A stretch of DNA of 64,000 nucleotides from NCBI RefSeq assembly GCF_026210795.1, contig NC_089454.1, positions 2,976,001-3,040,000 of the forward strand. The letters run 5' to 3'. The stretch is from Rhizophagus irregularis (taxonomy: Eukaryota > Glomeromycota > Glomeromycetes > Glomerales > Glomeraceae). Under the pieces are notes generated by a model that was given only the letters and a program-made list of their open reading frames with translations, had not been told where the DNA came from and ran no database searches. The translations under genes and the position numbers were made by a program. Numbering within the stretch: position 1 is the first letter of the stretch; each line of letters begins with the position of its first letter. Below are positions 1,116-63,920 of this stretch, piece by piece.

Positions 1116-1260
1116 TGAAACATTAGGGGATAAAGGGAGATAATGCATGCATAGAAAAGGAGATAATAGAAGAATATATCCCATACATAATAAGAAAACA
1201 ATGATAATAATATTAAATTTTTGGCGCATAAAATTCGGCTGTTTTAATTTATTATAAATA
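1116..1260 (+). promoter_or_regulatory. Promoter of CaaX peptide gene A: TGAAACA plus AGGGG plus TATA
   Basis: TGAAACA is at 1116-1122, directly followed by TTAGGGGATAAAGGGAGATAA, and TATAAATA is at 1253-1260, 133-140 nt before the ATG at 1393. TGAAACA is the established Ste12 pheromone response element of budding yeast; AGGGG matches the yeast stress element. The same order and spacing recur at every intact copy. Confidence 0.6.
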
Positions 1261-1392: not shown

Positions 1393-1494
1393 ATGAATAC
1401 AACAACTATCATCATTTCTAAACCAGTTGTCATTATTACTTCCGAAGTAACTGAAAAACCTGGTAATCCTACAAACTCATGTTCTATAATGTAA
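1393..1494 (+). CDS. CaaX-box mini-peptide, copy A (33 aa), pheromone-precursor-like
   Basis: ATG at 1393, TAA at 1492-1494, 33 codons. The peptide starts MNTTTIIISKPVVIITSEV and ends TEKPGNPTNSCSIM. The final Cys-Ser-Ile-Met is a canonical CaaX box, and terminal Met favours farnesyltransferase. Fungal a-factor-type pheromone precursors are similarly short proteins ending in CaaX, with a charged residue pair before a mature peptide of about 8-15 residues; here Glu21-Lys22 precedes PGNPTNSC. The copy has an A-rich leader (CAAATCAAATAAATC) and its own TATA box, and GCCTGGTGCT lies at 1591-1600 downstream. Codons differ from sister copies mostly silently or conservatively. It differs from the consensus at residue 3 (Thr for Pro) and residue 8 (Ile for Thr). 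Pheromone function is inference; a prenylated signalling or membrane peptide of other kind is possible. Confidence 0.72.
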   Translation: MNTTTIIISKPVVIITSEVTEKPGNPTNSCSIM

Positions 1495-2518
1495 ACGCTA
1501 TCCGCTAATCTAAAAAAATAACGGCGGAGGACGTTTTAAGAAAGAAGTAAACCGGTCTTTCGATGAAATTGGTCTATCTTCGATTGGTTAGCCTGGTGCT
1601 ACGACAATGAAGATTTACAAGTAACGAACTCAACGGTCCTATAAAATCAATTTATATATTATAGTTAATTCAAAAGTACATTAATTACATTGTAAATAAT
1701 AGTTATTTTTTTATTTTTAATATTTGTATATATCTATTTTTAATCTTCGATTAAAAAAAAAAATAAAATGAAAAGTATTTAATCAATTTTATATAAAAAC
1801 TATTTCAAATGTTATTGAACTTGTTATAAATTATTCTTTATAACTAATATTAATTGTTCATTGGCGCTCCTAATTATCTGAATTTAATCGTTCCATTAGG
1901 AAAAAATGTGGTGAATAAGGAAGCGTAGAAGATAAATGTTCCCATAATATTTATTCATTTGTGGAAATAATTGTTCTAATTTTATATTCAAACTTTTAGA
2001 TCCATAAATTATTAAATTAATGGATCCTTCAGTATATAGAATCATGTAGTAATACTATATCCTAATTGCAATAAGATAAAGATATTTTACTTATTAGTTC
2101 CTTAACGTGAAAAAATTTTATTTTCATAATGTCATTATTTTGTTCAATTCCGATCGAACGATAGGAATAATATAACTATTTCACAATCTAGTAAAACAAT
2201 CTTTTTTAAAAAAAAATATAATACAAACAACCAATGATCCGCTAGAGAAAAAATAAGCCATCCTTAAGAAATTTTAATACAGTAGTTACGCAAAATCATT
2301 TTTTTTTAAACAAGTGTAACTTTTATAATATTCAAGTATTCAACATATGACTCAATGTACTTGCATACTATGGCATCAACGGGTTATGTACGGCATTATC
2401 ACATACAATAATTTGACTTTGAAACATAAAGGAGTATAGGGATATAAAGGAGGTAATGCGTAAATAACATATTACATAATAAGAAAATAATGTAAAATTT
2501 GAATATAATGATAATAAA

Positions 2519-2668
2519 ATGAAATTTTATTGTTTATTACCATTTATTATAATATACTTTGATATTGTTCTTGTTAATTTTCTCATCAATGACACAAAAG
2601 AAAAGTTCAAAGAACAAAAAAAAAAAATTAAAAAACCTCTCAGCCCTACAAATCAATGTTTTATAATG
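2519..2668 (+). pseudogene. Truncated CaaX-peptide relic X1 (lost start, ends CFIM)
   Basis: The promoter signature is present (TGAAACA at 2420-2426), and the TATA region and leader are recognisable (TTATTATAATATAC, then TTTTCTCATCA). The leader then runs straight into AAACCTCTCAGCCCTACAAA and codons for KPLSPTNQCFIM at 2633-2668. The first 20 or so codons of the peptide are missing and there is no stop right after the Met. The 69-codon open frame covering this stretch (2519-2728) is therefore promoter plus leader plus coding remnant, not a separate gene. Confidence 0.7.
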
Positions 2669-3109
2669 ACTTTTAATAAAAAAAAACGTAGAATAACTTT
2701 AAGAAGTAAAATTACTAATAACCTTTAGATGACAATTGGTCTATTTTTCTATGAAGATTAAAATCCTCTTAACGATTTAAACGACGCGATAATAAAATAA
2801 AAATAATTTATATTACGATAAATTCTGGTGTTTATTCAAGAAATAAAAATATATTTCTAAAAAAAAATGTACTATAATTAACTATATTTGCTGATTAATA
2901 TTTCTCTGTGATGTCCAAATATAGTGCCGCAGCAACTAGTTAATGATCCATAGTTCTTTTGTTTTACAAATTGGGAATTGATTTTGATTTTTTTTTAGAA
3001 CAAATATTACTGTGTAGTAACTAACACAACAAACATATTATTGTGATACAGGCATAACCATGTGACATCACTAAAAAAACAAATTCCAAGAATGGCTTAA
3101 TGTTATACT

Positions 3110-3256
3110 TGAAACAATTAGGGGATAACGCATAGGAAAGGAGATAATAGAGGAATGTCCCATACATAATAAGAAAACAATAATAATAATATTACAATGA
3201 AGATAATATTAAACTTTTAGAGCATAAAATTCGTTTGTTTTGATCTATTATAAATA
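3110..3256 (+). promoter_or_regulatory. Promoter of CaaX peptide gene B
   Basis: TGAAACA at 3110-3116 followed by ATTAGGGGATAA, then TATAAATA at 3249-3256. The distance from TGAAACA to the ATG (279 nt) matches copy A (277 nt). Confidence 0.6.
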
Positions 3257-3388
3257 TACTGATATTTCGCCTTGTAAAATTTTCTCATCAAATAATAAAA
3301 AGAAAAATCCAAAGAACAAAAAAAAAATATATTAAATAAAAAAAAATTCACAAAAATCATTCTCAAATAAAAAACAAATCTTTTCACA

Positions 3389-3490
3389 ATGAATCCAACA
3401 ACTATCATCACTTCCAAACCAGTCATCATTGTTACTTCCGAAGTAACGGAAAAACCTGGTAATCCTACAAATTCATGTTCTATAATGTGA
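3389..3490 (+). CDS. CaaX-box mini-peptide, copy B (33 aa)
   Basis: ATG at 3389 and TGA at 3488-3490. Starts MNPTTIITSKPVIIVTSEV and ends TEKPGNPTNSCSIM; CaaX cysteine is residue 30. This sequence is close to the family consensus. It uses a TGA stop where copy A uses TAA, and ACG instead of ACT for the Thr before Glu-Lys. GCCTGGTGCT is at 3575-3584, 85 nt after the stop. See copy A for the functional reasoning. Confidence 0.72.
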   Translation: MNPTTIITSKPVIIVTSEVTEKPGNPTNSCSIM

Positions 3491-4830
3491 ATACTATTAT
3501 TACCATCTGCTATAAATCCAAAGAAAAATCGAGGAAAGAAGTGAAACCGAAGAAATTAACTCATCTTACAATTAGCCTGGTGCTGATCATAAAGATTTAA
3601 AATCCTCTTAATAACGGACTACCGGTTTAATTTTTTTTTATTAAAAAAATATTACTTTTGTAAATAAAAAACTTTTTAATTTAGTAATTTTTTAGTCATT
3701 TGTATATTTGTATATTTGTATATTTTTTTTTACCTTTCAATTGAAAAAATAAAATAAAAATTTTCTAATTTTATATAATGAATGATATATTAAACGCTTA
3801 TAAATTTATACATTAAATGCACTTACTGTCCCAAAAAGATTTTTTTCACCATTTTATCGCTATATAATAAGTACATAATGAAAGATGACTCTTTTAATTT
3901 GAAGAGACCAGACTGACTGATTTAATGATTTTAAGGATTATTCTATTTATCTTACTAATTACTATGCGGACCATCACCAATTAATGACTGAACTTGCCTC
4001 TGACCGATATTTTTAACCTCTTTTCCATATTAAAATTTGTTTAAAATATGTGCGTTATTATAAAACATATATAATTATGCGATAATTATTTGATATTCCT
4101 TACTTCTTTTTTCTTCCAACGTGAAAAAAATTTATTTTCATCACGTTATTTTACTTTATTACGAACGATTAAGAAAAATCTCAATAAAATAACTCTAAAA
4201 ATCCGCTCCATCATGATCGATTACCCAATGTCGAAAGCGTTCTTCCCACTGTGCTAGTCAAGTACAGAAGATCCCGAAATATACATTAAAAAAGCCAGGT
4301 CTAAGTCTGCGTAGAAATAATCATGTAGATCTTGTCTTAATTCTGGTCAAAAATTTTTTACCCTTTTAGAATACTGGCTGACATTAACTTAATTCCAGCC
4401 CTGAAGAAATGCGTAAAACGGACTACTGAACCTAACCTCTATATATATATATTTTCGGAATTCTGATATAGAGAGAGTTTATCCTCATTGAAAAATGCTT
4501 CTTTTTGAAATATATCCTATTCAAAATATGCTAAGATTTTAAGAACATTGATTTTAGAGAATTCAGATAACTTAAAAATACGTACAGTACAACAATAATA
4601 ATGTCATCGCAAAATTTTTTTTGTAAAACATTTTTTAAATTAGAATTTTTTTTTTTAAAAACATTAAAGTGTGTGATATCTAACACAACATATACTATTT
4701 TTATTTAGTATTAGATGCAACGTAACTGCAGCATCGGCGTATTGTGATACGGATATTTAATAGTGCATGTTATTGTTTGATACAATACAATAGTATGATA
4801 AATCCCGAAATGATTTATATTATTATTACT

Positions 4831-4975
4831 TGAAACATTAGGGGATAAAGGGAGATAATGCATGCATAGAAAAGGAGATAATAGAAGAATATATCCCATA
4901 CATAATAATAAAACAATGATAATAATATTAAACTTTTGGCGCATAAAATTCGGCTGTTTTAATTTATTATAAATA
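4831..4975 (+). promoter_or_regulatory. Promoter of CaaX peptide gene C
   Basis: TGAAACA at 4831-4837, then TTAGGGGATAAAGGGAGATAA and TATAAATA at 4968-4975; ATG 268 nt after the TGAAACA start. Confidence 0.6.
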
Positions 4976-5098
4976 TACCGTGATTTCACCTTGTAAAATT
5001 TCCTCATCAAAAAAAAAACTCAAAGAATAAAAAACTAATCAAACAAATCAAACAAATTAATTCAGAAATCTTTTTCAATAAAAAAAAATCTAATCACA

Positions 5099-5197
5099 AT
5101 GAATCCAACAATTATTACCTCTAAACCAGTTATCATTATTACTTCCGAAGTAACCGAAAAACCTGGTAATCCTACAAACTCATGTTCTATAATGTAA
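5099..5197 (+). CDS. CaaX-box mini-peptide, copy C (32 aa)
   Basis: ATG at 5099, TAA at 5195-5197. Starts MNPTIITSKPVIIITSEV (one Thr codon fewer than copies A and B) and ends TEKPGNPTNSCSIM, so the CaaX cysteine is residue 29. The missing codon is an in-frame deletion in the N-terminal Thr/Ile stretch, as expected if the frame matters. GCCTGGTGCT is at 5295-5304. Confidence 0.72.
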   Translation: MNPTIITSKPVIIITSEVTEKPGNPTNSCSIM

Positions 5198-6255
5198 ACA
5201 CTATCCGCTAATCTAAAAAAAATAACGGCGGAGGACGTTTTAAGAAAGAAGTAAACCGGTCTTTCGATGAAATTGGTCTATCTTCGATTGGTTAGCCTGG
5301 TGCTACGACAATGAAGATTTACAAATAACGAACTCAACAGTCCTATAAAATCAATTTATTTATTATAGTTAATTCAAAAGTACATTAATTACATTGTAAA
5401 TAATAGTTATTTTTTTTTATTTTTAATATTTGTATATATATTTTTAATCTTCGATTTAAAAAAAAAAATAAAATGTAAAGTATTTAGTAAATTTTATATA
5501 AAAACTATTTTAAATGTTTATTGAACTTCAGTTGTTATAAATTATTCTTTATAACTAATATAAATTGTTCATTGGTGCTCCTAATTATCTGAATTTAATC
5601 GTTCCATTAGGAAAAAATGTGGTGAATAAGAAAGCGTAGAAGATAAATGTTCCCATAATATTTATTCATTTGTGGAAATAATTGTTCTAATTTTATATTC
5701 AAACTTTTTAGATCCCTAAATTATTAAATTAATGGATCTTTCAGTATATAGAAACATGTAATACTAGTATATCCTAATTGCAATAACTGAAGATAAAGAT
5801 ATATTACTTATTAATTCCTTAACGTGAAAAAATTTTATTTTCATAATGTCATTATTTTGTTTGATTTCTATCGAACGATAGGAAAAATATAATTATTTCA
5901 CAATCCAGTAAAACAATCTGTTTTTTAAAAAAAAATATAATACAACCAACCAATGATCCGATAGAGAAAAAAAAAGCCGTCCTAAAGAAATTTTAATACA
6001 GTAGTTACGCAATCATTTTCTTTTTAGGACAAGTGTAACTTCTGTGTGACGTATAATATTCAACAACATATGATACCTAGATGCGGTGTCAATGTACTTG
6101 CATACTATGGCATCACCGGATTATGTACGTCATTGTCACATACAATAATTTGACTTTGAAACATAAAGGAGTATAGGGATATAAAGGAGGTAATGCGTAA
6201 ATAACATATTACATAATAAGAAAATAATATAAATTTTAAATATAATGATAATAAA

Positions 6256-6403
6256 ATGAAATTTTATTGTTTATTACCATTTATTATAATATACTTTGAT
6301 ATTGTTCTTGTTAATTTTCTTATCAATGACACAAAAGAAAAGTTCAAAGAACAAAAAAAAAATTAAAAAACCTCTCAGCCCTACAAATCAATGTTTTATA
6401 ATG
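6256..6403 (+). pseudogene. Truncated CaaX-peptide relic X2 (ends CFIM)
   Basis: Unit-2 counterpart of the relic at 2519. TGAAACA is at 6157-6163, and KPLSPTNQCFIM codons lie at 6368-6403 with no start methionine in the normal position and no stop after the Met. The two relics share the same truncation, so the deletion predates the unit duplication. Confidence 0.7.
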
Positions 6404-6848
6404 ACTTTTAATAAAAAAAAACGGAGAATAACTTTAAGAAGTAAAATTACTAATAACCTTTAGATGACAATTGGTCTATATTTCTATTATGAAGATTAAA
6501 ATCCTCTTAACGATTTAAACGACGCGATAATAAAATAAAAATAATTTATATTACGATAAATTCTGGTGTTTATTCAAGAAATAAAAATATATTTCTAAAA
6601 AAAAAATGTACTATAATTAACTATATTTGCTGATTAATATTTCTCTGTGATGTCCAAATATAGTGCCGCAGCAACTAACCAATGATCCAATAGTTCTTTT
6701 GTTTTACAAATTGGGAATTGATTTTGATTTTTTTTTTAGAACAAATATTACTGTGTAGTAACTAACAACAAACATGTTATTGTGACACAGGTATGACCAT
6801 GTGACATCACTAAAAAAACAAATTCTAAGAATGGCTTAATGTTATACT

Positions 6849-6994
6849 TGAAACATTAGGGGATAACGCATAGGAAAGGAGATAATAGAGGAATGTCCCA
6901 TACATAATAAGAAAACAATAATAATAATATTACAATGAAGATAATATTAAACTTTTAGAGCATAAAATTCGTTTGTTTTGATCTATTATAAATA
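6849..6994 (+). promoter_or_regulatory. Promoter of CaaX peptide gene D
   Basis: TGAAACA at 6849-6855, TTAGGGGATAA following, TATAAATA at 6987-6994; ATG 281 nt downstream of the TGAAACA start. Confidence 0.6.
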
Positions 6995-7129
6995 TACTGA
7001 GATTTCGCCTTGTAAAATTTCCTCATCAAATAATAAAAAAGAAAAATCCAAAGAACAAAAAAAAATATATATATCAAACAAAAAAAAATTCACAAAAATC
7101 TTTCTCAAATAAAAACAAATCTAATCACA

Positions 7130-7231
7130 ATGAATCCAACAACTATCATCACTTCTAAACCAGTTATCATTGTTACTTCCGAACTAACGGAAAAACCTGG
7201 TAATCCCACAAATTCATGTTCTATAATGTGA
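7130..7231 (+). CDS. CaaX-box mini-peptide, copy D (33 aa)
   Basis: ATG at 7130 and TGA at 7229-7231. Same as copy B except Leu for Val at residue 19 (CTA for GTA) and silent changes (CCC for CCT at the second Pro of PGNP). Ends TEKPGNPTNSCSIM. GCCTGGTGCT is at 7337-7346. Copies B and D occupy equivalent positions in units 1 and 2. Confidence 0.72.
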   Translation: MNPTTIITSKPVIIVTSELTEKPGNPTNSCSIM

Positions 7232-8619
7232 ATACTACTACTATTACCATCTGCTATAAATCCAAATAAAAATTGAGGATGGCTCTAAGAAGTGAAACGA
7301 CCGATCGTCCGAAGAAATCAACTTATCTTACAATTAGCCTGGTGCTGATCATGAAGATTTTACCGGTTTACATTTTTTTTATTAAAAAAATAGTACTTTT
7401 GTAAATAAAAAGCTTTTTAATTTAGTATCATTTGTATATTTGTATATTTGTATATTTATTTTACCTTTCAATTGAAAAAAATAAAATGAAAATTTTCTAA
7501 TTTTATATAATGAAGTATTTTAAATGATCTATTAAACTTATAAATTTATGCATTAAATGCACTTACTGTCCCAAAAAGATTTTTTTTCACCATTTTATCG
7601 TTATATAATAACATAATGAAAGATGACTCTTTTAATTTGAAGAGATCAGACTAACTGATTTAATGATTTTTTAAGATCATTTTATTTATCCTTACTACGC
7701 GGACCATTGGATGTGGACATTAACTAAAAATCAAATTTACCTTTTTATTTATCTAATGATTGAACATGGAACGTCGCCCTCTGGCCGATATTTTTAACCT
7801 CTTATCCATATAGTATTAAAATTGGTTTAAAATATGTGTTGAATATGTTATTACAAAACATAATTATACAGTAATCATTTGATATTCCTTCTTTTTTCTT
7901 CCAACGTAAAAAAAATTTATTTATTTTACTTTGTCATTACGAACGATTAAGAAAAATCTCAATAAAATAACTAAAAATCCGCTCCATCATGATCGATTAC
8001 CCAATGTCGAAAGCGTTCTTCCCACTGTGCTAGTCAAGTACAGAAGACCACAAAATATACATTAAAAAAAGTCAGGTCTAACCGTCTAAGTCTTCGTAGA
8101 AATCATCATGTAGATCTTGGGTCAAAATTTTTTTACCCTTTTAGATACTGGCTGACATTATATTACTAATTCCGGCCCTGAAGAAATGCGTATAACGGAC
8201 TACTCCTGAACCTAACCTCTATGTTTATATTTTCGGAGTTCTGGTACAGAGAGAGTTATTCTCATTGAAAAATGCTTCTTTTTGAAATATATCTTATTCA
8301 GAATATGCTAAGATTTTAAGATCATTAATTTTAGAGAATTCAAATGTTTTTGGTACGTACAATAATAATAATGTCACGCAAAAAAATTTTTTTTTTTTTA
8401 AACCATTTTTAAAATTAGAATTTTTTTTTTAGAACATTAGAAGTGTGTGGTATCTAACACAACGAATAATATCTAAGGTATTAATATTAGATACAGCATA
8501 CTGCAGCAGTATCGGCGTATTGTGATACGGGCGTATGCTCAATTTTGAATAGTGCATATCATTGCTATATACAATACAATAGCGGAATAAACTTTTAAAA
8601 TGATTTATATTATTATACT

Positions 8620-8757
8620 TGAAACATTAGGGGTAAAGGGAGATAATGCATAGAAAAGGAGATAATTGAGGGATATCCCACACATAATAAGAAAACAATG
8701 ATAATAATATTAAAACTTTTGGCGCATAAAATTCGTTTGTTTGATTTATTATAAATA
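8620..8757 (+). promoter_or_regulatory. Promoter of CaaX peptide gene E
   Basis: TGAAACA at 8620-8626, TTAGGGGTAAAGGGAGATAA following, TATAAATA at 8750-8757; ATG 272 nt after the TGAAACA start. Confidence 0.6.
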
Positions 8758-8891
8758 TACCGAGGTTTCTCCTTGTTAAATTTCCTCATCAAAAAAAACT
8801 CAGAATAAAAAATTAATCAAACAAATCAAACAAATTAATTCTCAAAAATCTTCAAAAATCCTTCTCAAATAAAAAAAAAAATCTAATCACA

Positions 8892-8990
8892 ATGAATCCA
8901 ACAATTATCACCTCTAAACCAGTTATCATTGTTACCTCCGAATTAACAGAAAAACCTGGAAATCCTACAAACTCATGTTCTATAATGTAA
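8892..8990 (+). CDS. CaaX-box mini-peptide, copy E (32 aa)
   Basis: ATG at 8892, TAA at 8988-8990. Starts MNPTIITSKPVIIVTSEL and ends TEKPGNPTNSCSIM. The Leu is encoded TTA here, CTA in copy D and Val GTA elsewhere, so this site changes conservatively. GGA replaces GGT for the Gly, a silent change. GCCTGGTGCT is at 9084-9093. Positional counterpart of copies A and C. Confidence 0.72.
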   Translation: MNPTIITSKPVIIVTSELTEKPGNPTNSCSIM

Positions 8991-9380
8991 ATACTATTAT
9001 TACTACCTGCTATAAATCCAAAGAAAAATGGAGGATGGCTTTGAGAAGTGAAATAACCGATCGTCCGCCTATCTTTACAATTAGCCTGGTGCTATTATGA
9101 AGATTTTTTAACGAACGGCTGGAACTCTATTATAAAAAAAATCGATTACGTTTTATTCTTATAATTTATTTATTAAAAAATTAAATTTGTAAATTTGTCT
9201 TTGTAAATTAAAATTTTCAATATTGTATATATTTATTTTTACTTTTCGATTAAACAAATTAAATGAAAATTGTATATATTTTTACTTTTCGATTAAAAAA
9301 TAAAATGAAAATTACCTAATTCTATATAACAAAAGTATTTCAAATGTTTTATTAAAACTTATTACAATAAATTATCCGTG

Positions 9381-10019
9381 ATAACTTATATAAAATTCTC
9401 GCTGCCGTAATTAGATCGCTATAACAAGATGAAAGATCCCATTTTAAAATGAATCAAAATATATTACACTCACTCTTATTTATTTCCATTTTTTAAAAAA
9501 GAAAATATCGATATGTCTTACCAAACTTATATTTTAACGGTCATTTTATTTATTGTGTTCTTGTTTTTGTATTAGAAGATTAGGGCGGGTTAATTAAAAT
9601 TGTTGCGACCCACGAACTACACCCTTCCGGTCAGTTGTCCTAACGACCGAACTTATTTGGACAGGAGGCAAAGAATATGTGTGCTTAATTACGATATTAT
9701 TTTATTTTCATGACGTTTTTATTTTGTTGTCAATGATTAAAAAAAAAATCTATTTCAAAGGTTAATAAAATAACCGATTCTTACAATCAGCTCAACCAAT
9801 GAATGATCCACGAAAGCTCCTTAAAAAAAAAATCTTTTAATGATAAAAATAAAGATAAAGTTACGCAATTATTATTATTTTTCTTATTATTAAGAACAAA
9901 AATATGCGTGGTACTGATGCAATGTCGACATATTTGCATATGGCGCCACCGTAGTACGACTATGTACGACTTTCCATATAAAAAAATATAATAACAAAAG
10001 CAACTTCTTATATCATACC
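9381..10019. other. Diverged continuation of the third repeat unit
   Basis: Resembles the opening part of a unit (CGCTATAACAAGATGAAAGATCCC..., TTATTTTCATGACGTTTTTATTTTG) but is too diverged to align throughout. A 62-codon open frame at 9803-9991 shows no family features. I see no gene here. Confidence 0.4.
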
Positions 10020-10339
10020 TGAAACACTAAGGGGTATAAAGGAGATAATCATAGAAAAATAGAAAAATATCCCAATGTAAATTTTAACGCAAAAACTTTG
10101 CTTGTTGCTATTTATTATGAATATAACTTGATTTAGCCTCGTTAATTTTCTTACCAAGTAACAAAAAAAAAATAAAACAAATCAAAAAATCAAACAAATA
10201 AAAAAAAATCAATTCTCAAAAATCTTCCTCATCTAATTAAAATGAATCCAACAACCATTATTTATAAACAGTCGTTATTATTACTTCCGAAGTAACGGAA
10301 AAACCTCTCAATCCTACAAATCAATGTTCCAAAATGTAA
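10020..10339 (+). pseudogene. Frameshifted CaaX-peptide copy F (ends CSKM)
   Basis: TGAAACA at 10020-10026 followed by CTAAGGGGTATAAAGGAGATAA. The TATA box is changed to TATGAATA near 10115. ATG at 10242 reads MNPTTIIYK, then one C is missing in the Lys-Pro codons, so the frame shifts and hits a stop. In the restored register the sequence would continue with the usual Ser-Glu-Val-Thr-Glu-Lys block and end CSKM before TAA at 10337-10339. Loss of the Ile at the third CaaX position and of the TATA box fits a dead copy. Confidence 0.65.
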
Positions 10340-10388
10340 ACACTAACCGCTGAATCCAAAAAACGAAGACGTTTTAAGAAGAAAATTA

Positions 10389-10662
10389 ATGTTCTCTTGT
10401 TGATATTTTCATTTTTTATTATATTTATGTAATCTATTTTTAGCCATTATCCCTTTTTTGCGCATTCATTGTTCATTTTTAATGTTCTCCAGTTAATGTT
10501 TTCATCATTCTCTATCTTACATAATTTATTCTTCGCCATTATCACTTTTCCTATGCATTGCATTAATATTCTCCGGTTGGTGTTTCCATTTCTTATAACC
10601 ATTATCTACTTTCTTACGCATTGCATTGCTCATTTTTAATATTCTACCGTTGATGTTTTTTC
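10389..10662. repeat. Tandem repeat, ~75-90-bp unit, 3 to 4 copies
   Basis: Units start AATGTTCTCTTGTTGATATT (10389), AATGTTCTCCAGTTAATGTT (10480), AATATTCTCCGGTTGGTGTT (10565) and AATATTCTACCGTTGATGTT (10638), each followed by a pyrimidine-rich body with CCATTATC and GCATTGCATT. Not coding. Confidence 0.65.
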
Positions 10663-11295
10663 GAACAGCCACGCTTTTAAAAATAAGTTTCAAAAAATAA
10701 ATACAGACGTCACAGCATGTGACTGTGAAAAAAACAATGCAGTGTGACTAACATGTGATAAATGGGATTTGACAAAAAACTCAAGTCCCCAGGATTACGG
10801 AAACGGCAGTGATGACAAATAAATCTATTGTTAGAAGCGGGAGTGGGATAACTGATTAATATTTTCCCGTTGTACAACAATCAACAATATAGATTTTTTT
10901 ACAATTGTTTAAAAACAATATTCTCAATGGTGATTACGACAAATCAATGATGATTAAAGTAGTTTGGATTTACGGGAGAGTATGATCACATGTCTAGTTG
11001 CAGCTATTTTAAAAAATTTATGTAATAACAATATTATGCATCATTTTTTTTTGTTTTGAGCTTTTGAAAAATGAAGCGCAGTAGAAGGACATTTAGATAA
11101 TTTATTATTGGCGTTTAGTGAATTTACATAAAATCAAAAAATTTTCACTTTATTATTTTTTTAATAAACGAAGTAAATAAAATATACACAAATATGATAT
11201 AAAAAATTAAGCGATATTCAAAATTACAAATAAAATTTTTAAATTACAAAAATAAATACAATCCAAATTATTAAAAGAAATTTAATAAAAATAAT
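10663..11295. other. Intergenic, no gene seen
   Basis: A+T-rich sequence between the tandem repeat and the inverted CaaX-peptide copy. No open frame of note and no family resemblance recognised. Confidence 0.4.
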
Positions 11296-11428
11296 AGCAC
11301 CAGGCCATTTTTTCGACTAATAGTAACTGCATCATTAATATAATTTTTCGGCTAAAATTGATCTCCATAGGTTTTTCCATGTAATAACCGAAGGCGTTTG
11401 TACCGTTCTCAGAGAAGAATTTTTCCAT

Positions 11429-11527
11429 TTACATTATAGAACATGAGTTTGTAGGATTACCAGGTTTTTCTGTTACTTCGGAAGCAACAATAACAATTGG
11501 TTTGGAGGTAATAATTGTTGGATTCAT
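11429..11527 (-). CDS. CaaX-box mini-peptide, inverted copy G (32 aa)
   Basis: Minus strand, ATG at 11527-11525, TAA at 11431-11429. Starts MNPTIITSKPIVIVASEV and ends TEKPGNPTNSCSIM. This is the most diverged intact copy (Pro-Ile-Val and Ala substitutions), yet the CaaX end and the Glu-Lys-Pro-Gly segment are unchanged. Its TATAAATA is at 11654-11661 (as TATTTATA on +), and the reverse complement of GCCTGGTGCT is at 11296-11305, downstream of the stop. The upstream element reads CGAAACA (11815-11821) rather than TGAAACA, followed by TCAAGGGAGAATA. Confidence 0.7.
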   Translation of the reverse strand: MNPTIITSKPIVIVASEVTEKPGNPTNSCSIM

Positions 11528-12600: not shown

Positions 12601-12665
12601 ATTTTTGTAGGATTAATATTACTCCAGAAGCAACAATATTAACTGGCTTGACAGTGATGATTGTT
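12601..12665 (-). pseudogene. CaaX-peptide relic H
   Basis: On the minus strand AATCATCACTG..AAGCCAGTTA and ATTGTTGCTTCTGGAGTAA, then ATTAATCCTACAAAAATCAAT, align with the coding middle and end of the CaaX-peptide genes but with several indels and no CaaX codons left. A good TGAAACATTA is upstream (12846-12855 on minus, complement TAATGTTTCA). Confidence 0.5.
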
Positions 12666-12984
12666 TGATTAATTTGATTTTGTTTTGAACAATTTTTTTT
12701 TTAAAAATGGGTTAATTAATTTGTTTTTATTTGATAAGGATTTGATGGGGTGAAAATTAATAATTATTATCGATTACTAATTATCATAAATTCTTAACAA
12801 TGATTCTTATTATCTATATCATATTTCTTTATAAATATCCCCCTTTAATGTTTCAAGTATAATATCAAGAATTTGAACAATCATTTTTAATATCATGCAT
12901 GATTGGTACATGTTATTATTGCCGTTTTCAAAATGATTGAAATTGAATGTCGATCATCACGTAAGTGATAAGTTAATAAATACT

Positions 12985-37844: not shown

Positions 37845-40800
37845 ATGGACTCCCAAATTGAAAATTTTTTTTCAGAAATAGAAAATCTAATTGAACTTCA
37901 ACTCCAAGAGAACATTCAAGATAAGTCAGAGGTGAAGAAAAAATTTAGAGAAGGAAAAAAGTTAATTGATGAATTAGAAGAAGATAATGAGGAGTTATAC
38001 AAATTTTTTAAGTTCAAGTATCATACAACATATGCTAGCTATTTAAAAACCGTTGGCGAAGTAGACAATGCTACTAAGCAGCAAAATTTAGCAAAGGGAT
38101 ACAAAAATTTTGAGAGTATGGATCCTCACAAAAAAGAATCGATACTATTTATGAATGCCAAGTTAAATCTAAATCAAGTTTCTGAGGAAAAATCTCTACT
38201 AGAAGATGTAGAGAAGCAATTAAAAAATATTCAACCCATTTTAGGAGATAATATTCTTGAATCTATCAGACAAATCTTTAAACAACTCATTAAGTTACCA
38301 GTAACTTTTAGAGAGTATGAGGAAATTGTTAATTATGCAACTCATTTAAATAAGACAATAGATGCTTTAATTTATGAGGGGATAATTAATTTGGAAGTAC
38401 CTCAGAATGCAGAAACCAATGAAGTCGAACAATTGGAGCATCAAATCAAAACTATAGTTGAAAGAAATAAAAATAAGCAAGAATTTATAGATTCTTTAAA
38501 ACGTTTAAAAGATTTGGCTTCAGAAATAACTTATTCAAGAAGAATAGCTTTTATACAGCATGTTTTGAACTCTTCAAATAAAAAAGAAGTCTTATATAGT
38601 GATACACTGTTTACGGAGGAAGAAATTAACAAACGCTCCAGAAAACTCGCTTCTTACTTCCATCCTGATAAAACTAATAAGCCCAATACTCCAAATAGCC
38701 TTCGAGACAAACATAAAAACCTAGGCGCTGATATATTTAAAGTCATTCAAGAATTTAGAGATATCTTGTTGTCTGAATTAAGAGTTACCTCAAATAATGA
38801 AGGATTGAGTTTTCATGAAAAAAAGGCAAATGAGCTTTGGAAATTAACAATTGATTTTCGTAATGCAGCTAAAGGACAATGGGATAAACTAAAAGTGTTA
38901 AAAAAAGATGAAATTAAAGAATTTTCCTCTGAAGAATTAGAGAATTTTAGTGTATCAAATGGAATATTAGCCTATCAGGAATATCGAGCAGCTTGCAAAA
39001 TTGTTGATAGAGAAAAACAGCTAAAAAAACAAGTAAAACTACGAGGAAGTATGGCATTATGTTTATATGTCTCTAATAAATATCTTGAAGCCCAATTATA
39101 TGCTTTATCAGCAATTCAGTTGCAACTTAAGAATCCTCAAAAGGTTACGAGACAGGATTTAATTGACGCAACAAATATATTTGACAAAGTTAAAAATGGG
39201 AATATTACTGAAGCAAATCCTAAACCAAATACCGAGATTAAGCTAAAAAGCAATTCATTGGCTTTAGTAAAAATAGTTGATCAGGAGATTTCCTTTTTTG
39301 AAAGAAAGGCTTTTTGTCGTTCAATTAATGAAGATATGGAAAAATTAAGTACAGAATTACTACTTAAGCCAGATCGCAGTTTAGTTCGTTATCAAGCTGC
39401 TCAAGAAGAAATTTTACATGCAAAAAAACGTGCCTCTAAATATAAAATGGCGGGATGGGCAACGTTCGCAGCTGGAGGCTTAGCAAGCACCGTTGGTATT
39501 GCTGAATCAGCGACAGCGTTTATGATTGCAGGTCCAATTGCAGGACTATTTGCTATAGGTTTAGGAATATATTGCGGCACTAAACTATGGAGAAAAGGCT
39601 CATCTCTTTTGGAAGAACCAGAGATTCGTGAAAATCTCAACGAAATTATGAAAGATGCGCTGAAAGCTTATGATAAAGGAAATTATCAAGCATTCTTCGA
39701 ACAACTTTCTAAAAAATATGATGAAAATGGTTCTCGACTTTTTAAATTGGAAGAACGTGAGGATTCTATTATACCAAAAGATATAATAGATTCACTTTTA
39801 ATTCATGGCTTTAGATCGGATGGTATTGCATACCTTTTAAATTTACTTGGTGAAGTCTTAAATAGTGGGAAAATAGAAATTAAAGGAAAAACAGGAAAAA
39901 TAGAAAAAACAACAGATGAATTAAAGGATCTAGCAAAAAATGTTTTTCTTGGGGTTCTAAGTGAAAGACTTAAAGAACAGGCTAAAAAATTAGATGACCG
40001 TGTTAATAATTTACGTAGCCGTAAATTCTTTAAAAGTTTTAGCGATAAGGTTAAGGATTTTTTTTCATTTCAAGAGTACAGTGATATAGCTAAAGTACAC
40101 AGAGATGACGCTCAAGAAATGCCATTCCAGTCGAGATTAGGAGAAATGTGTAATATTGCAAGAATTAATCTCTCAATTTTTGATATAATACACGGCGGTC
40201 AGATAGAAGTTGACCGAGCTAAAGAAACTATTAAAAAAATTCGAGATTCAATTAATTGTGAGCATCAATTTGTTGGTATGGCTAAATCACGCTTAGAAGC
40301 TTTGGAGGATTTATTATGGGTTGTTAATGGTGATGAACAACCTAAGGAATCACCTGAACTACTTCAAATTACTTTCTCAGCAGATACCATGAATTATATT
40401 GACAACAAATATCTTCGTTATCTTGATGAAAAACTACAGCAGACAACTTCTAATCAAGAAAAAATAGAAATATATAACAAGATAGCGGTTTTTTACGGAC
40501 AATTAGCCGAAAAAGAAGACAAAATTAACCGATTAAACAGCTTAAAATATTGGTATCATGCTCAAAAAAGTTATGAACATATACGTGAAATGGATGTCGA
40601 TAATCTTGATGCCACGCTTGGTTTTGCAAAATGTCTCCTAAAATTGTCTAAGTATACGCAGGTTGTTAAGCTTCTTGATACCAATCAAGGTTTAACCTCT
40701 TCATCGGAGTATTTGTACTATTGTAGTATTGCTTATTGTAGGAAAAATGATTATGATAAAGCAAACGAGAAAATTGTTCATGCATTGAGTATAGATTCTA

Positions 40801-41876
40801 GAAACAAATCAGCTAGTAGGCAATGTGAAATTCTCAAAAAACTAAAAAAAAATACGATTACAAGTCGAACTAAACGCTATAATTATTATAAAAAGAATAT
40901 TAAATATGAAAGAAGTTATTTAGTAAATTCGCGTAATAATAACCCAATTTATAACGTACTCTCAATTGATGGAGGAGGAATACGTGGAGTATTACCTGCT
41001 TTATGGCTCAGTGAGATTGAGAATCGTACTCATAGACCCATTTCTCATCTATTTAATATGATAGCTGGAACATCAACAGGCGGGTTTATCGCTGCTGGAC
41101 TGTCGGCACCAGATTGGTCATATTCAGAAGAAAAAGTGTATAATTATTCAGATTTCAAGCCAAAATTTTCAGCTTTAGAATTATTAAATTTTTACCGGGA
41201 AGGTCAAGCAAAGGACATATTCGCTAAAAAATGGCTGAATTACTACAAGAGGCTATTTTCTCCGTCATCAGAGTTTAATCATTATTTTCGGGATCAATTT
41301 TGCGAGACACGATTAAGCCAAGCACTTACTGAATTAGTTATCCCAGCAGCAAATGTAATTGATAACTCCACATATTTATTTACACGTTATGATGCTCATA
41401 ACGATTCCTCAAAAGATCACACCTTTATTGAAGCTTTAATGGCCACAACAGCTACACCTACTTTTTTTTCGCCTTATAATGGCTATATAGATGGAGGAAT
41501 GCATCTCAATAATCCGGCAATGGCAGCTTACAATGAAGCTATTCGATATGAAGTATCAAGTAAAAGGGTTTCGGTGCTCTCTTTGGGCACAGGTGAATAT
41601 ATACCAGACCCTTTAAATCCAGACAAATACTGGGATCAACTTTTTTGGCCAAAAGATAACCATAATGCGCAAGAATGTAACACCGATTCTCAATTGTACA
41701 ATACGTTGGGAAATTGCTATCAACGATGGCAAGTTTTTTTTGAAGAACCTATAGGATTTAATGATATCCAGAGTATCCCTTATCTCTTAGAGATAGGTAA
41801 TCAGTATATAGAAGAGCTCGATGCTTCGGATGACAATCCTATGAACAAGCTGGTGGAGTCTTTTTACGATATTTAG
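37845..41876 (+). CDS. Patatin-like phospholipase with J-like, TPR-like and membrane-hairpin regions (1343 aa)
   Basis: One uninterrupted exon. I start at ATG 37845 (MDSQIENFFSEIENLIELQL); the frame is open 11 codons further but only from a GTG. Regions: long helical N-terminus; J-domain-like segment around 262-310 with the HPD tripeptide at 273-275 (LASYFHPDKTNKP); two hydrophobic helices at about 535-580 (GWATFAAGGLASTVG, MIAGPIAGLFAIGLGIYCG); TPR-like helices at about 900-990; patatin domain from about 1036. The last has the oxyanion loop DGGGIRG (1042-1048), the nucleophile motif GTSTG with Ser1077, and the catalytic DGG with Asp1216, so the Ser-Asp dyad is intact. Expected activity is acyl hydrolysis of phospholipids or galactolipids. 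Lack of introns and the unusual fusion contrast with the neighbouring intron-rich genes and may point to acquisition from bacteria; that is inference. Confidence 0.85.
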   Translation: MDSQIENFFSEIENLIELQLQENIQDKSEVKKKFREGKKLIDELEEDNEELYKFFKFKYHTTYASYLKTVGEVDNATKQQNLAKGYKNFESMDPHKKESILFMNAKLNLNQVSEEKSLLEDVEKQLKNIQPILGDNILESIRQIFKQLIKLPVTFREYEEIVNYATHLNKTIDALIYEGIINLEVPQNAETNEVEQLEHQIKTIVERNKNKQEFIDSLKRLKDLASEITYSRRIAFIQHVLNSSNKKEVLYSDTLFTEEEINKRSRKLASYFHPDKTNKPNTPNSLRDKHKNLGADIFKVIQEFRDILLSELRVTSNNEGLSFHEKKANELWKLTIDFRNAAKGQWDKLKVLKKDEIKEFSSEELENFSVSNGILAYQEYRAACKIVDREKQLKKQVKLRGSMALCLYVSNKYLEAQLYALSAIQLQLKNPQKVTRQDLIDATNIFDKVKNGNITEANPKPNTEIKLKSNSLALVKIVDQEISFFERKAFCRSINEDMEKLSTELLLKPDRSLVRYQAAQEEILHAKKRASKYKMAGWATFAAGGLASTVGIAESATAFMIAGPIAGLFAIGLGIYCGTKLWRKGSSLLEEPEIRENLNEIMKDALKAYDKGNYQAFFEQLSKKYDENGSRLFKLEEREDSIIPKDIIDSLLIHGFRSDGIAYLLNLLGEVLNSGKIEIKGKTGKIEKTTDELKDLAKNVFLGVLSERLKEQAKKLDDRVNNLRSRKFFKSFSDKVKDFFSFQEYSDIAKVHRDDAQEMPFQSRLGEMCNIARINLSIFDIIHGGQIEVDRAKETIKKIRDSINCEHQFVGMAKSRLEALEDLLWVVNGDEQPKESPELLQITFSADTMNYIDNKYLRYLDEKLQQTTSNQEKIEIYNKIAVFYGQLAEKEDKINRLNSLKYWYHAQKSYEHIREMDVDNLDATLGFAKCLLKLSKYTQVVKLLDTNQGLTSSSEYLYYCSIAYCRKNDYDKANEKIVHALSIDSRNKSASRQCEILKKLKKNTITSRTKRYNYYKKNIKYERSYLVNSRNNNPIYNVLSIDGGGIRGVLPALWLSEIENRTHRPISHLFNMIAGTSTGGFIAAGLSAPDWSYSEEKVYNYSDFKPKFSALELLNFYREGQAKDIFAKKWLNYYKRLFSPSSEFNHYFRDQFCETRLSQALTELVIPAANVIDNSTYLFTRYDAHNDSSKDHTFIEALMATTATPTFFSPYNGYIDGGMHLNNPAMAAYNEAIRYEVSSKRVSVLSLGTGEYIPDPLNPDKYWDQLFWPKDNHNAQECNTDSQLYNTLGNCYQRWQVFFEEPIGFNDIQSIPYLLEIGNQYIEELDASDDNPMNKLVESFYDI

Positions 41877-62378: not shown

Positions 62379-63920
62379 TCAAACCTCCAAGTCAAATAAT
62401 TTAGAATCTTGACAATCTATAGAAGAAATACTTAGCAATTTTAAAATAAATATTTAATTAAAAATTTCAAAATAATACAATACCTTTATCATTTTCTTCA
62501 TCGTTAAGGTATGATGTCATAATAGATGAATTTACAGGTTTTGTTAAATTATTAAATGTAAGTAACCTACTAGTATATATGGCATCAGGGTTTTTCTTAT
62601 ATGAAGTTGAAATATTTGGTATTTCTTTATCAGCTTCTTCAAACATAGCTTTAATTTCTTTTCCTTTATATCCAAATTTTTCTTTTTCTTTATAGCTTTC
62701 AGGGTGAAGAGATTCTAACCAAAAGTCAAATACGTCAAGAAATTCACTGGCTGTTGGTCTTTGATTTGAATTAGCATTCATACATTTATAGGCTAGTTTC
62801 TTATAAATTTCAGGAGTTCCTTTTCCAAATTCTGGTCTGAGTCCATTACATATTTCTAATGCTAAGCTAATATCATGTTTTCTTTCATAAAAAGGTGGTT
62901 TTCCAGAAGATAATTCAGCCATAATTACACCAAAACTATAAATATCTGAAGATAATGTATATGGTTCTCCATTTAAAACTTCTGGGGCAATATATGGTAA
63001 CACACCACATATTTTATCATCTGATTTTTGTTTATTTGATGGTCCAGACAATCCAAAGTCTGAAATAGAAGTTTGATGTTCATCTACTCGTAATATATTT
63101 CCACTATGAAAATCTTTGTGAAAATATCCTAACTTATGTAAATTTTTAAGACCAGATATTAACCAAAATAAATATTTTATCTTATCTTTCCATAAAATGT
63201 TTTTGAAATTGTGTGAAAGAACACTTCTCAAATTTCCTTCATCTGCAAATTGTAAAATCATTATAAATTCTTCAGTTTCAGGATCTTTGGTCATTCCATA
63301 AAATTTTAATGGAGTAGCATTACCACTTCTTATATAAAAATACCAATGTATTTTAAGCTATTATTTACATTAAAATTAATATTAAAATTTTTGATTAATT
63401 AAAAATTAAGTAAAATATGTAAAGCCAATACAAAACATACCTCATTTAAATATTCAGTTGACATGTTCTCTGATCCATTTAATCTTTTCAAAGCAACTTT
63501 GATAGGTTGAGGTTCTTTTTTTTTCCAACTTAAATCATCTTGTCTATCATATTCTGCTTTACCGTCAATCCATGTTGCAGAATACACTTTTGCAAATCCT
63601 CCTACACCAATTTCCTTTACGTCTTTAAACCTATCAAATGGTACCCATTCAAGAATATCTTTCGAAGTGTATTTTCTTGCATCATAAATTGTATCTTTGA
63701 TAAATTTATTAACGTCATTATTTCCACTGGTCCAACCTTCAATCATACGAAAAGGATCACATTCTTTACACCATAATTCTTCAGTAAATGGTTTATTGCA
63801 ATAAGAACAATTTTTATGGTTAATATTTAAAGAAGCCTCATTTGCATTTATTGGATTAGAATCTTTATTAGAGACATTTAATTTATCAAATAAGGATTTA
63901 AGTTTCTTAAGTTTATGCAT
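62379..63920 (-). CDS. TKL-type protein kinase with N-terminal Cys4 ribbon (463 aa)
   Basis: Three exons on minus: 63920-63441, 63357-62484 and a 38-nt last exon 62416-62379; phases close to 463 aa. The last exon gives DCQDSKLFDLEV; reading through its donor instead gives only GIVLF. N-terminus: zinc-ribbon-like Cys38-x2-Cys41 and Cys51-x2-Cys54 (CSYCNKPF...LWCKECDPF). Kinase domain: glycine loop IGVGGFAKVY (104-113), Lys145 in VALKRL, HKDFHSGN (His240, Asp242, Asn247), DFG 260-262, APE 284-286, DIYSFGVIMAELSSGKPPF, and NQRPTASE of subdomain XI. All catalytic residues are present; HKD replaces HRD. This domain order and the KLFDLE tail match the very large kinase families of Rhizophagus (from memory). 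Substrate unknown. Confidence 0.93.

What the first reader, a model, noticed from the sequence alone, without database searches (positions are those of the whole stretch)
1393..11527. Amplified family of 32-33-aa CaaX-box peptides resembling lipopeptide pheromone precursors
Six intact copies (1393, 3389, 5099, 7130, 8892 on +; 11527 on -) and four relics encode a peptide with invariant end TEKPGNPTNSCSIM. Seen: short length, charged Glu-Lys eight residues before Cys, CaaX end, and a complete gene layout at each copy. Known: a-factor-type precursors of asco- and basidiomycetes have this design, are often multicopy, and are missed by gene finders because of their size. Inference: a prenylated secreted signal in a fungus whose sexuality is debated.
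Basis: partly seen in the sequence, partly recalled or inferred. Interest (0 to 1): 0.93.

Follow-up and report, generated by a model that had tools for sequence, protein, structure and literature searches.

The report
Candidate fungal lipopeptide pheromone gene family
A root-symbiont fungus long thought to be asexual carries about forty tiny, strongly conserved genes for peptides built like the fatty mating pheromones of yeasts and mushrooms, plus one matching type of receptor gene, so the question of hidden sex in these fungi can be tested directly.

Summary
The six intact copies lie at the stated coordinates. The genome (146.7 Mb, 32 contigs; Rhizophagus irregularis by inference) holds at least 49 places, 40 of them intact genes on 13 contigs, with seven end types. 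They code for protein: in the four CaaX codons of 38 intact copies 13 synonymous changes face 1 replacement; within four clades the last 14 codons differ at 0 of 2696 compared positions 1+2 and 135 of 1348 positions 3. In 20 of 25 clade pairs DNA similarity ends within 7 bases past the stop. Relatives exist in R. clarus, Diversispora, Acaulospora, Gigaspora, Cetraspora and metagenomes; some precursors carry two head-to-tail units, as described for rhodotorucine A. One STE3 (a-factor-type) receptor locus was found, with a STE24 CaaX-protease gene 14-15 kb away. Halary et al. 2013 reported STE3 and STE6 in this group but no pheromone gene. Best reading: precursors of farnesylated a-factor-like lipopeptides, probably STE3 ligands. 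Coding genes and the constrained CaaX end are shown; prenylation, export, receptor binding and a mating role are inferred. No expression data could be examined.

The parts
1393..1494 (+). intact gene, 33 aa MNTTTIIISKPVVIITSEVTEKPGNPTNSCSIM, stop TAA
3389..3490 (+). intact gene, 33 aa MNPTTIITSKPVIIVTSEVTEKPGNPTNSCSIM, stop TGA
5099..5197 (+). intact gene, 32 aa MNPTIITSKPVIIITSEVTEKPGNPTNSCSIM, stop TAA
7130..7231 (+). intact gene, 33 aa MNPTTIITSKPVIIVTSELTEKPGNPTNSCSIM, stop TGA
8892..8990 (+). intact gene, 32 aa MNPTIITSKPVIIVTSELTEKPGNPTNSCSIM, stop TAA
11429..11527 (-). intact gene, 32 aa MNPTIITSKPIVIVASEVTEKPGNPTNSCSIM, stop TAA
2630..2668 (+). relic, only KKPLSPTNQCFIM left, no start
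6365..6403 (+). relic, same residues as the one at 2630
10242..10336 (+). relic with a frameshift, ends TEKPLNPTNQCSKM
12620..12673 (-). possible fourth relic (INQTIITVKPVNIVASGV), weak
   Evidence: E 0.015 within the window
3249..3255 (+). TATAAAT, 140 bases before the ATG at 3389; 34 of 38 intact copies have the word within 450 bases upstream
1253..1259 (+). TATAAAT before the ATG at 1393
   Evidence: read by eye
3110..3116 (+). TGAAACA, 279 bases before the ATG at 3389 (same word as the yeast Ste12 pheromone response element; that name is recalled)
1116..1122 (+). TGAAACA before the ATG at 1393
   Evidence: read by eye
1588..1601 (+). conserved 3' motif TTAGCCTGGTGCTA after the stop of the 1393 gene; GCCTG[AG] lies within 260 bases after the stop in 27 of 38 intact copies

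Best explanation
A multigene family of precursors for a-factor-like lipopeptide signals. Each gene makes a 28-34 aa precursor: a faster-evolving, Thr/Ile/Val-rich leader, a TEKP-type step, then 7-10 residues (for example PGNPTNSC) and a farnesylation box CSIM or CTIM. Inferred steps: farnesyltransferase acts on the Cys, the last three residues are removed (Ste24/Rce1 type), the Cys is methylated (Ste14/ICMT type), the leader is cut near the invariant proline, the lipopeptide is exported by a Ste6-type transporter and read by the STE3 receptor. In other genera two units sit head to tail in one precursor. Shown here: the genes, the CaaX constraint, conservation across the subphylum, and the presence of STE3, STE24, ICMT-family and prenyltransferase-family sequences. 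Whether the signal serves mating, recognition of self or kin hyphae, or both, is open.
For: Coding: in 38 intact copies the CaaX columns have 13 synonymous and 1 nonsynonymous change on the tree (82% nonsynonymous expected under a simple mutation model of mine, p 2e-9), the Cys codon 8 and 0. These copies were picked for having the box; adding my count of changes in the dropped copies that have a start gives 6 of 19 (p 2e-6), adding all dropped copies 13 of 26 (p 2e-4). Without that choice: of 42 places with an in-frame ATG 40 keep the box, of 7 without one 2 do. Last 14 codons within four clades: 0 of 2696 compared positions 1+2 differ, 135 of 1348 positions 3, flanks 4.5-39% (pairwise, not independent). 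Similarity between clades ends a median of 3-10 bases after the last sense codon, i.e. within 7 bases of the stop, in 20 of 25 clade pairs with a match. Box and start kept where the middle is remodelled (C17, C10, C11). Relatives: 18 of 65 hits carry a species name, all 18 Glomeromycotina (R. irregularis not looked up). STE3 locus, E 1e-35. STE24 nearby. TATAAAT in 34 of 38, and [TC]GAAACA in the -450 to -200 stretch of 11 of 13 clade representatives (resampling mean 1.5, maximum 5; downstream control 1 of 13). Literature: STE3 and STE6 present, pheromone gene missing (PMC3834313, passages).
Against: No transcript, peptide or binding data. One genome holds the receptor and seven end types, so signalling would be to self unless expression or specificity separates them. 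No family member was found on the receptor's contig C13, unlike basidiomycete P/R loci. No known pheromone family among Pfam hits. Some public gene models replace the final Met and stop by a tail. Processing enzymes are housekeeping and do not discriminate. The leader is only weakly constrained (dN/dS 0.74 within C22 and 0.52 within PDGN). The 13 representatives share ancestry; C10 and one C18 copy lack the upstream word there and C17 lacks TATAAAT.
Confidence: 0.65

Rival explanations
1. A secreted or surface lipopeptide signal that is not for mating: hyphal self-recognition, anastomosis or signalling to the plant, with or without STE3.
For: Receptor and all ligand types sit in one genome, which suits self-signalling; the copy number is above that of pheromone genes known to me (recalled).
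Against: STE3 and STE24 are near neighbours and the design is that of mating pheromones; but nothing computed here separates the two uses.
Confidence: 0.18
2. Prenylated microproteins that stay inside the cell, anchored to membranes, with a non-signalling role.
For: A CaaX box alone is not specific to pheromones (stated in PMC10569646, passages); no signal peptide was evident, though no predictor was run.
Against: Little besides the box, the proline and a few residues is strictly kept; two-unit precursors would need release of the inner unit, which suits a processed product; a-factor also lacks a signal peptide (recalled).
Confidence: 0.1
3. The frames are first exons: an intron begins inside the last Met codon (AT|GTAA) and the real proteins end differently.
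For: Seven public models from four species read CSI-I or CTI-I plus a tail instead of CSIM/CTIM plus stop (P0001, P0004, P0018, P0033, P0035, P0043, P0055); the tail of P0001 was traced to DNA 70-100 bases past the stop. Stop codons are TAA 34, TGA 4, TAG 0.
Against: By eye the tails of these models share nothing, and DNA similarity ends at the stop in 20 of 25 clade pairs; Cys, Ile and Met codons are held at the protein level.
Confidence: 0.05
4. Chance frames in an amplified repeat or mobile element, without a protein product.
For: Tandem unit of about 3.7 kb in the window, intact copies on 13 contigs, nine of 49 places degraded.
Against: Codon-level constraint, conservation in other genera, no common boundary among the eight dispersed PDGN copies within the 1.5 kb held on each side.
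Confidence: 0.02

Closest known systems
a-factor-type CaaX/CPAX pheromone precursors of Ascomycota and Basidiomycota
   Same: Very short precursor, C-terminal CPAX/CaaX box, conserved C-terminal and more variable N-terminal part (as described for Leotiomycetes in PMC10569646, passages), several genes, STE3 receptor in the genome
   Different: No known pheromone family among Pfam hits; outside Dikarya; 40 intact genes on 13 contigs, none found on the receptor's contig; leader rich in Thr/Ile/Val
Rhodotorucine A precursors (RHA genes, Rhodosporidium toruloides and other red yeasts)
   Same: Tandem pheromone units separated by CaaX-like spacers in one precursor, as described in PMC3068285 and PMC3236058 (passages), like the two-unit precursors of Diversispora, Acaulospora and environmental sequences
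   Different: The R. irregularis genes found here have a single unit; different sequence; no linked pheromone-receptor locus seen
Hybrid h-type precursors (HPP1, Trichoderma reesei)
   Same: Repeated CPAX-like motif, last copy at the C-terminus, ending in Met (PMC3068285, passages)
   Different: No dibasic Kex2 site in the R. irregularis peptides (by inspection); longer repeated unit
Kex2-processed repeat proteins (KEPs) of R. irregularis
   Same: Proposed secreted peptide signals in the same fungus (PMC6339444, passages)
   Different: KEPs are described with a signal peptide and Kex2 sites; the present family has a CaaX box and no dibasic site

Membership tests
a-factor-type lipopeptide pheromone precursor | Short protein (<100 aa) with C-terminal CaaX/CPAX box, named the only strictly conserved character in PMC10569646 | tested here: met
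   40 of the 45 places end C[ST]IM at the stop; of 39 with an in-frame ATG, 38 do
a-factor-type lipopeptide pheromone precursor | CaaX box under protein-level constraint | tested here: met
   13 synonymous, 1 nonsynonymous change in 38 intact copies; still significant when dropped copies are added
a-factor-type lipopeptide pheromone precursor | Farnesylation and carboxyl methylation of the Cys | not testable with these tools
   a final Met suggests farnesyl (PMC3068285, passages); ICMT and prenyltransferase families ring but are housekeeping
a-factor-type lipopeptide pheromone precursor | STE3-type receptor in the same species | tested here: met
   one locus found, C13:4767083-4768006, E 1e-35, over the Pfam cut-off
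a-factor-type lipopeptide pheromone precursor | Ste6-type exporter | not tested
   reported for Rhizophagus in PMC3834313 (passages); not searched here
a-factor-type lipopeptide pheromone precursor | Activates the STE3 receptor | not testable with these tools
   needs a reporter assay
a-factor-type lipopeptide pheromone precursor | Sequence similarity to known pheromone families | tested here: not met
   no pheromone family among the Pfam hits of 33 members at E <= 10 (seven unrelated families, best E 0.0095); PMC10569646 says such genes are hard to find even among close relatives, so this is weak
Basidiomycete P/R mating locus | Pheromone genes next to the receptor gene | tested here: not met
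   no family member on contig C13; two CaaX-ended frames in 19.4 kb around STE3 look like chance
Kex2-type repeat precursors (alpha-factor, KEP) | Signal peptide and dibasic Kex2 sites | tested here: not met
   no KR, RR or KK in the 25 aligned peptides, by inspection; no signal-peptide predictor was run

The most novel reading that the evidence does not exclude
The first lipopeptide mating-pheromone system outside Dikarya: an old a-factor/STE3 signalling pair kept across the Glomeromycotina, with a many-gene, many-type ligand repertoire and one receptor, in fungi often called ancient asexuals.
Probability: 0.5. Interest if true: 0.96.

Novelty: new variant of a known kind. Interest (0 to 1): 0.9.

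Why it matters
Halary et al. 2013 reported STE3 and STE6 in arbuscular mycorrhizal fungi, found no peptide pheromone gene and asked for new methods (PMC3834313, passages). Mondo et al. 2017 state that Mucoromycotina lack the Dikarya pheromone-recognition genes and use trisporic acids (PMC5705715, passages). A conserved CaaX family in Glomeromycotina would fill the missing ligand slot, push lipopeptide pheromones back before Dikarya (or imply transfer), and give synthetic molecules with which mating, anastomosis or strain recognition in these crop symbionts can be tested. In ten literature searches (openly licensed PMC papers only, listings seen, passages of nine papers read) I saw no description of such genes in these fungi; subscription papers and preprints were not covered.

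Tried and rejected
Profile search of the own genome was not accepted, so only single peptides were used as queries; distant members may be missed. A query with a partial Acaulospora peptide gave 11 known places and nothing new. STE2 search found nothing, but the control also rang nowhere, so absence is not shown. The list of top 7-mers counts each word and its reverse complement separately and is not used. Small CaaX-ended frames near STE3 (2 in 19.4 kb) are about as frequent as unrelated ones in the window (5 of 11 in 64 kb, two of them nested) and look like chance. A search of the STE3 first exon against solved structures gave no match. A hairpin reading of the 3' motif (loop CUGGN in a 4-base stem, resembling a Smaug/Vts1 site, recalled) was considered; by eye its pairs change only to G-U or break, so it was left unexplained. 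Rows dropped before counts: the 7 of 45 places without both start and box were left out, and the four places were in none of them; one search puts a bound on what dropping does to the CaaX test (changes in dropped copies counted by me by eye).
Full report
Identity of the genome. The window lies in G000:C26:2976001-3040000 of a 146.7-Mb, 32-contig assembly. Two copies (C4:4638846 and C20:2936797) equal, up to CSI, proteins P0001 and P0018 annotated in Rhizophagus irregularis DAOM 181602, so the species is taken as R. irregularis by inference.

The observation. The spacing (1393 to 5099, 3389 to 7130, relics 2630 to 6365) points to a duplicated unit of about 3.7 kb holding two genes and one relic; this follows by subtraction. 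The array continues left of the window: 11 intact copies lie within C26:2963671-2987527 and a twelfth at C26:3177741.

The family. The first protein search gave 45 places; 38 of 45 have an ATG start and a C[ST]IM end, with 34 distinct peptides. A query with the most distant type added four places on C17 (two), C1 and C10; the two on C17 are intact. Together 49 places, 40 intact, on 13 contigs; the tool calls its counts lower bounds. A query with an environmental NQC-type peptide gave 41 places, one of them new against (a C17 copy). Two relics of the window (2630, 6365) were seen only locally. Of 42 places with an in-frame ATG 40 keep the box; of 7 without one 2 do. In the 25 distinct peptides aligned, M1, P23, C30, I32 and M33 never vary. 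The stretch from the invariant proline to the Cys differs by clade: PGNPTNSC, PDGNPTNSC, PAQPTNSC, PVQPKGVC, PLNVPPSTPC, PTEKTGNC, PEKTSNC; that cleavage falls there is inferred.

Selection. For the 38 intact copies mean pairwise dN/dS is 0.33 (703 pairs), 0.17 within the C26 copies (66 pairs), 0.30 within PDGN, 0.40 within C22 and 0.15 within C17. In the last 14 columns there is no nonsynonymous difference within C26, C22 and C17, and dN/dS is 0.06 within PDGN; the leader is looser (0.23, 0.52, 0.74 and 0.32). On a tree the four CaaX columns have 13 synonymous changes and 1 nonsynonymous (Ser/Thr); a mutation model with weights that I chose expects 82% nonsynonymous (p 2e-9). The last 14 columns give 39 of 82 nonsynonymous (p 1e-8, omega about 0.28), the rest 101 of 153 (p 0.02, omega about 0.68). 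Because these copies were chosen for having the box, I added the changes of dropped copies, counted by eye: 6 of 19 for copies with a start (p 2e-6), 13 of 26 for all (p 2e-4). Within four clades (110 pairs) the last 14 codons differ at 0 of 2696 compared positions 1+2 and at 135 of 1348 positions 3, while the 100 bases on either side differ by 4.5 to 39%. Among 25 clade pairs with a BLAST match across the gene, similarity ends a median of 3-10 bases after the last sense codon, that is within 7 bases past the stop, in 20; in five it runs on (C18-C4, C18-PDGN, C22-C5, C3-C5, C4-PDGN); C17 has no match to other clades at E 1e-5. Upstream the match often spans 150-210 bases. This is the behaviour of small protein-coding genes, not of a repeat.

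Upstream and downstream. 34 of 38 copies have TATAAAT within 450 bases; in the 12 of 13 clade representatives that have it, one lies 113-173 bases before the ATG (C17 lacks it). TGAAACA or CGAAACA, either strand, lies in the -450 to -200 stretch of 11 of 13 representatives against a first-order Markov resampling mean of 1.5 and maximum of 5 in 300 runs, and in 1 of 13 downstream controls; TGAAACA alone in 7 of 13 (mean 1.1, maximum 4). That TGAAACA is the yeast Ste12 element is recalled. The representatives share ancestry, so this is support, not proof. A 3' motif GCCTG[AG] lies within 260 bases after the stop in 27 of 38 copies (counted by eye).

Relatives. Three protein searches: 2 hits with one frame, 41 with a profile of R. 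irregularis peptides, 65 with a wider profile, 59 of them at E <= 0.01. Of these 65, 18 carry a species name: R. irregularis 8, R. clarus 2, Diversispora epigaea 1, D. eburnea 2, Acaulospora colombiana 2, Cetraspora pellucida 1, Gigaspora rosea 2; all species but R. irregularis were looked up and are Glomeromycotina. The two Gigaspora hits are weak by E-value (0.016 and 0.84) but carry TEKPDGDAVNQCSIM. Eight environmental proteins hold two units each with a Cys box (P0003, P0005-P0009, P0011, P0042); P0010 has a second unit in which Cys is replaced by Tyr; models of D. epigaea, D. eburnea and A. colombiana also hold two units, the second ending CSI before a tail or the end of a partial model; in Cetraspora and Gigaspora the second unit is cut short or diverges. 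In the environmental proteins the second unit repeats nearly the whole peptide from KP onward; in Diversispora and Acaulospora little more than G[VA]TEKP to the box is shared between units, which points to that part as the product (by eye). [quoted passage not shown]

Receptor and enzymes. PF02076 (STE3) rings at one locus, C13:4767083-4768006, in two exon-like pieces (E 1e-35 and 2e-18). PF02116 (STE2) gave no hit, but its control was silent too. ICMT, Prenyltrans and M48 families are present; these are ordinary eukaryotic genes. One M48 locus on C13 is a STE24: Peptidase_M48_N E 2e-32 and M48 pieces at C13:4750317-4751293, best PDB matches CAAX prenyl protease 1 homolog and Ste24p; an upstream frame to 4751923 gave no Pfam hit. 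It lies 14-15 kb from the STE3 frame that ends at 4766183, on the same strand; two other frames of at least 95 aa between them were not searched. By chance one given gene falls that close with a probability near 2e-4, but I looked at several families after the fact. Two literature searches on it listed nothing of the kind (0 papers; 10 of 17 listed, none opened for this).

Literature. [quoted passage not shown] PMC7490403 (passages): co-inoculation of two isolates raises putative mating genes, no upregulation of pheromone genes found; that the present frames were not measured is my inference. PMC5705715 (passages): Mucoromycotina lack the Dikarya pheromone-recognition genes. PMC10569646 (passages): the CaaX/CPAX box is the only strictly conserved character of a-factor and is not exclusive to it. 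PMC4915694 and PMC7329392 were looked into (passages) and add nothing on this family. Akada 1989 is known to me only through and recall.

Verdict. Real genes: near certain. CaaX end as the working end: very likely. A secreted a-factor-like lipopeptide acting through STE3: likely, 0.65. A mating role: about even. It works like an a-factor precursor; membership in the functional class awaits prenylation and receptor tests.

Noticed in passing
G000:C13:4750317-4751923 and 4766183-4768039 (L058, L054, L055): A STE24 CaaX-protease gene and the STE3 receptor gene lie 14-15 kb apart on the same strand; two frames of at least 95 aa between them were not identified.
   Followed up: partly
window 1588-1601 and equivalents; loci: Conserved 3' motif TTAGCCTGGTGCTA / TGGCCTGATGCTT, 49-130 bases after the stop in 27 of 38 copies; possible small hairpin with a CUGRN loop; function unknown.
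   Followed up: partly
P0001, P0004, P0018, P0033, P0035, P0043, P0055: Public gene models of four species read CSI-I or CTI-I plus unrelated tails instead of the CaaX end, as if an intron began at AT|GTAA, which hides the family from CaaX scans of annotated proteins.
   Followed up: partly
window 37845-41876 +: 1343-aa open frame with a C-terminal patatin-like phospholipase domain (E 4e-20).
   Followed up: no
window 62467-63294 -: Open frame with a protein kinase domain (E 9e-31).
   Followed up: no
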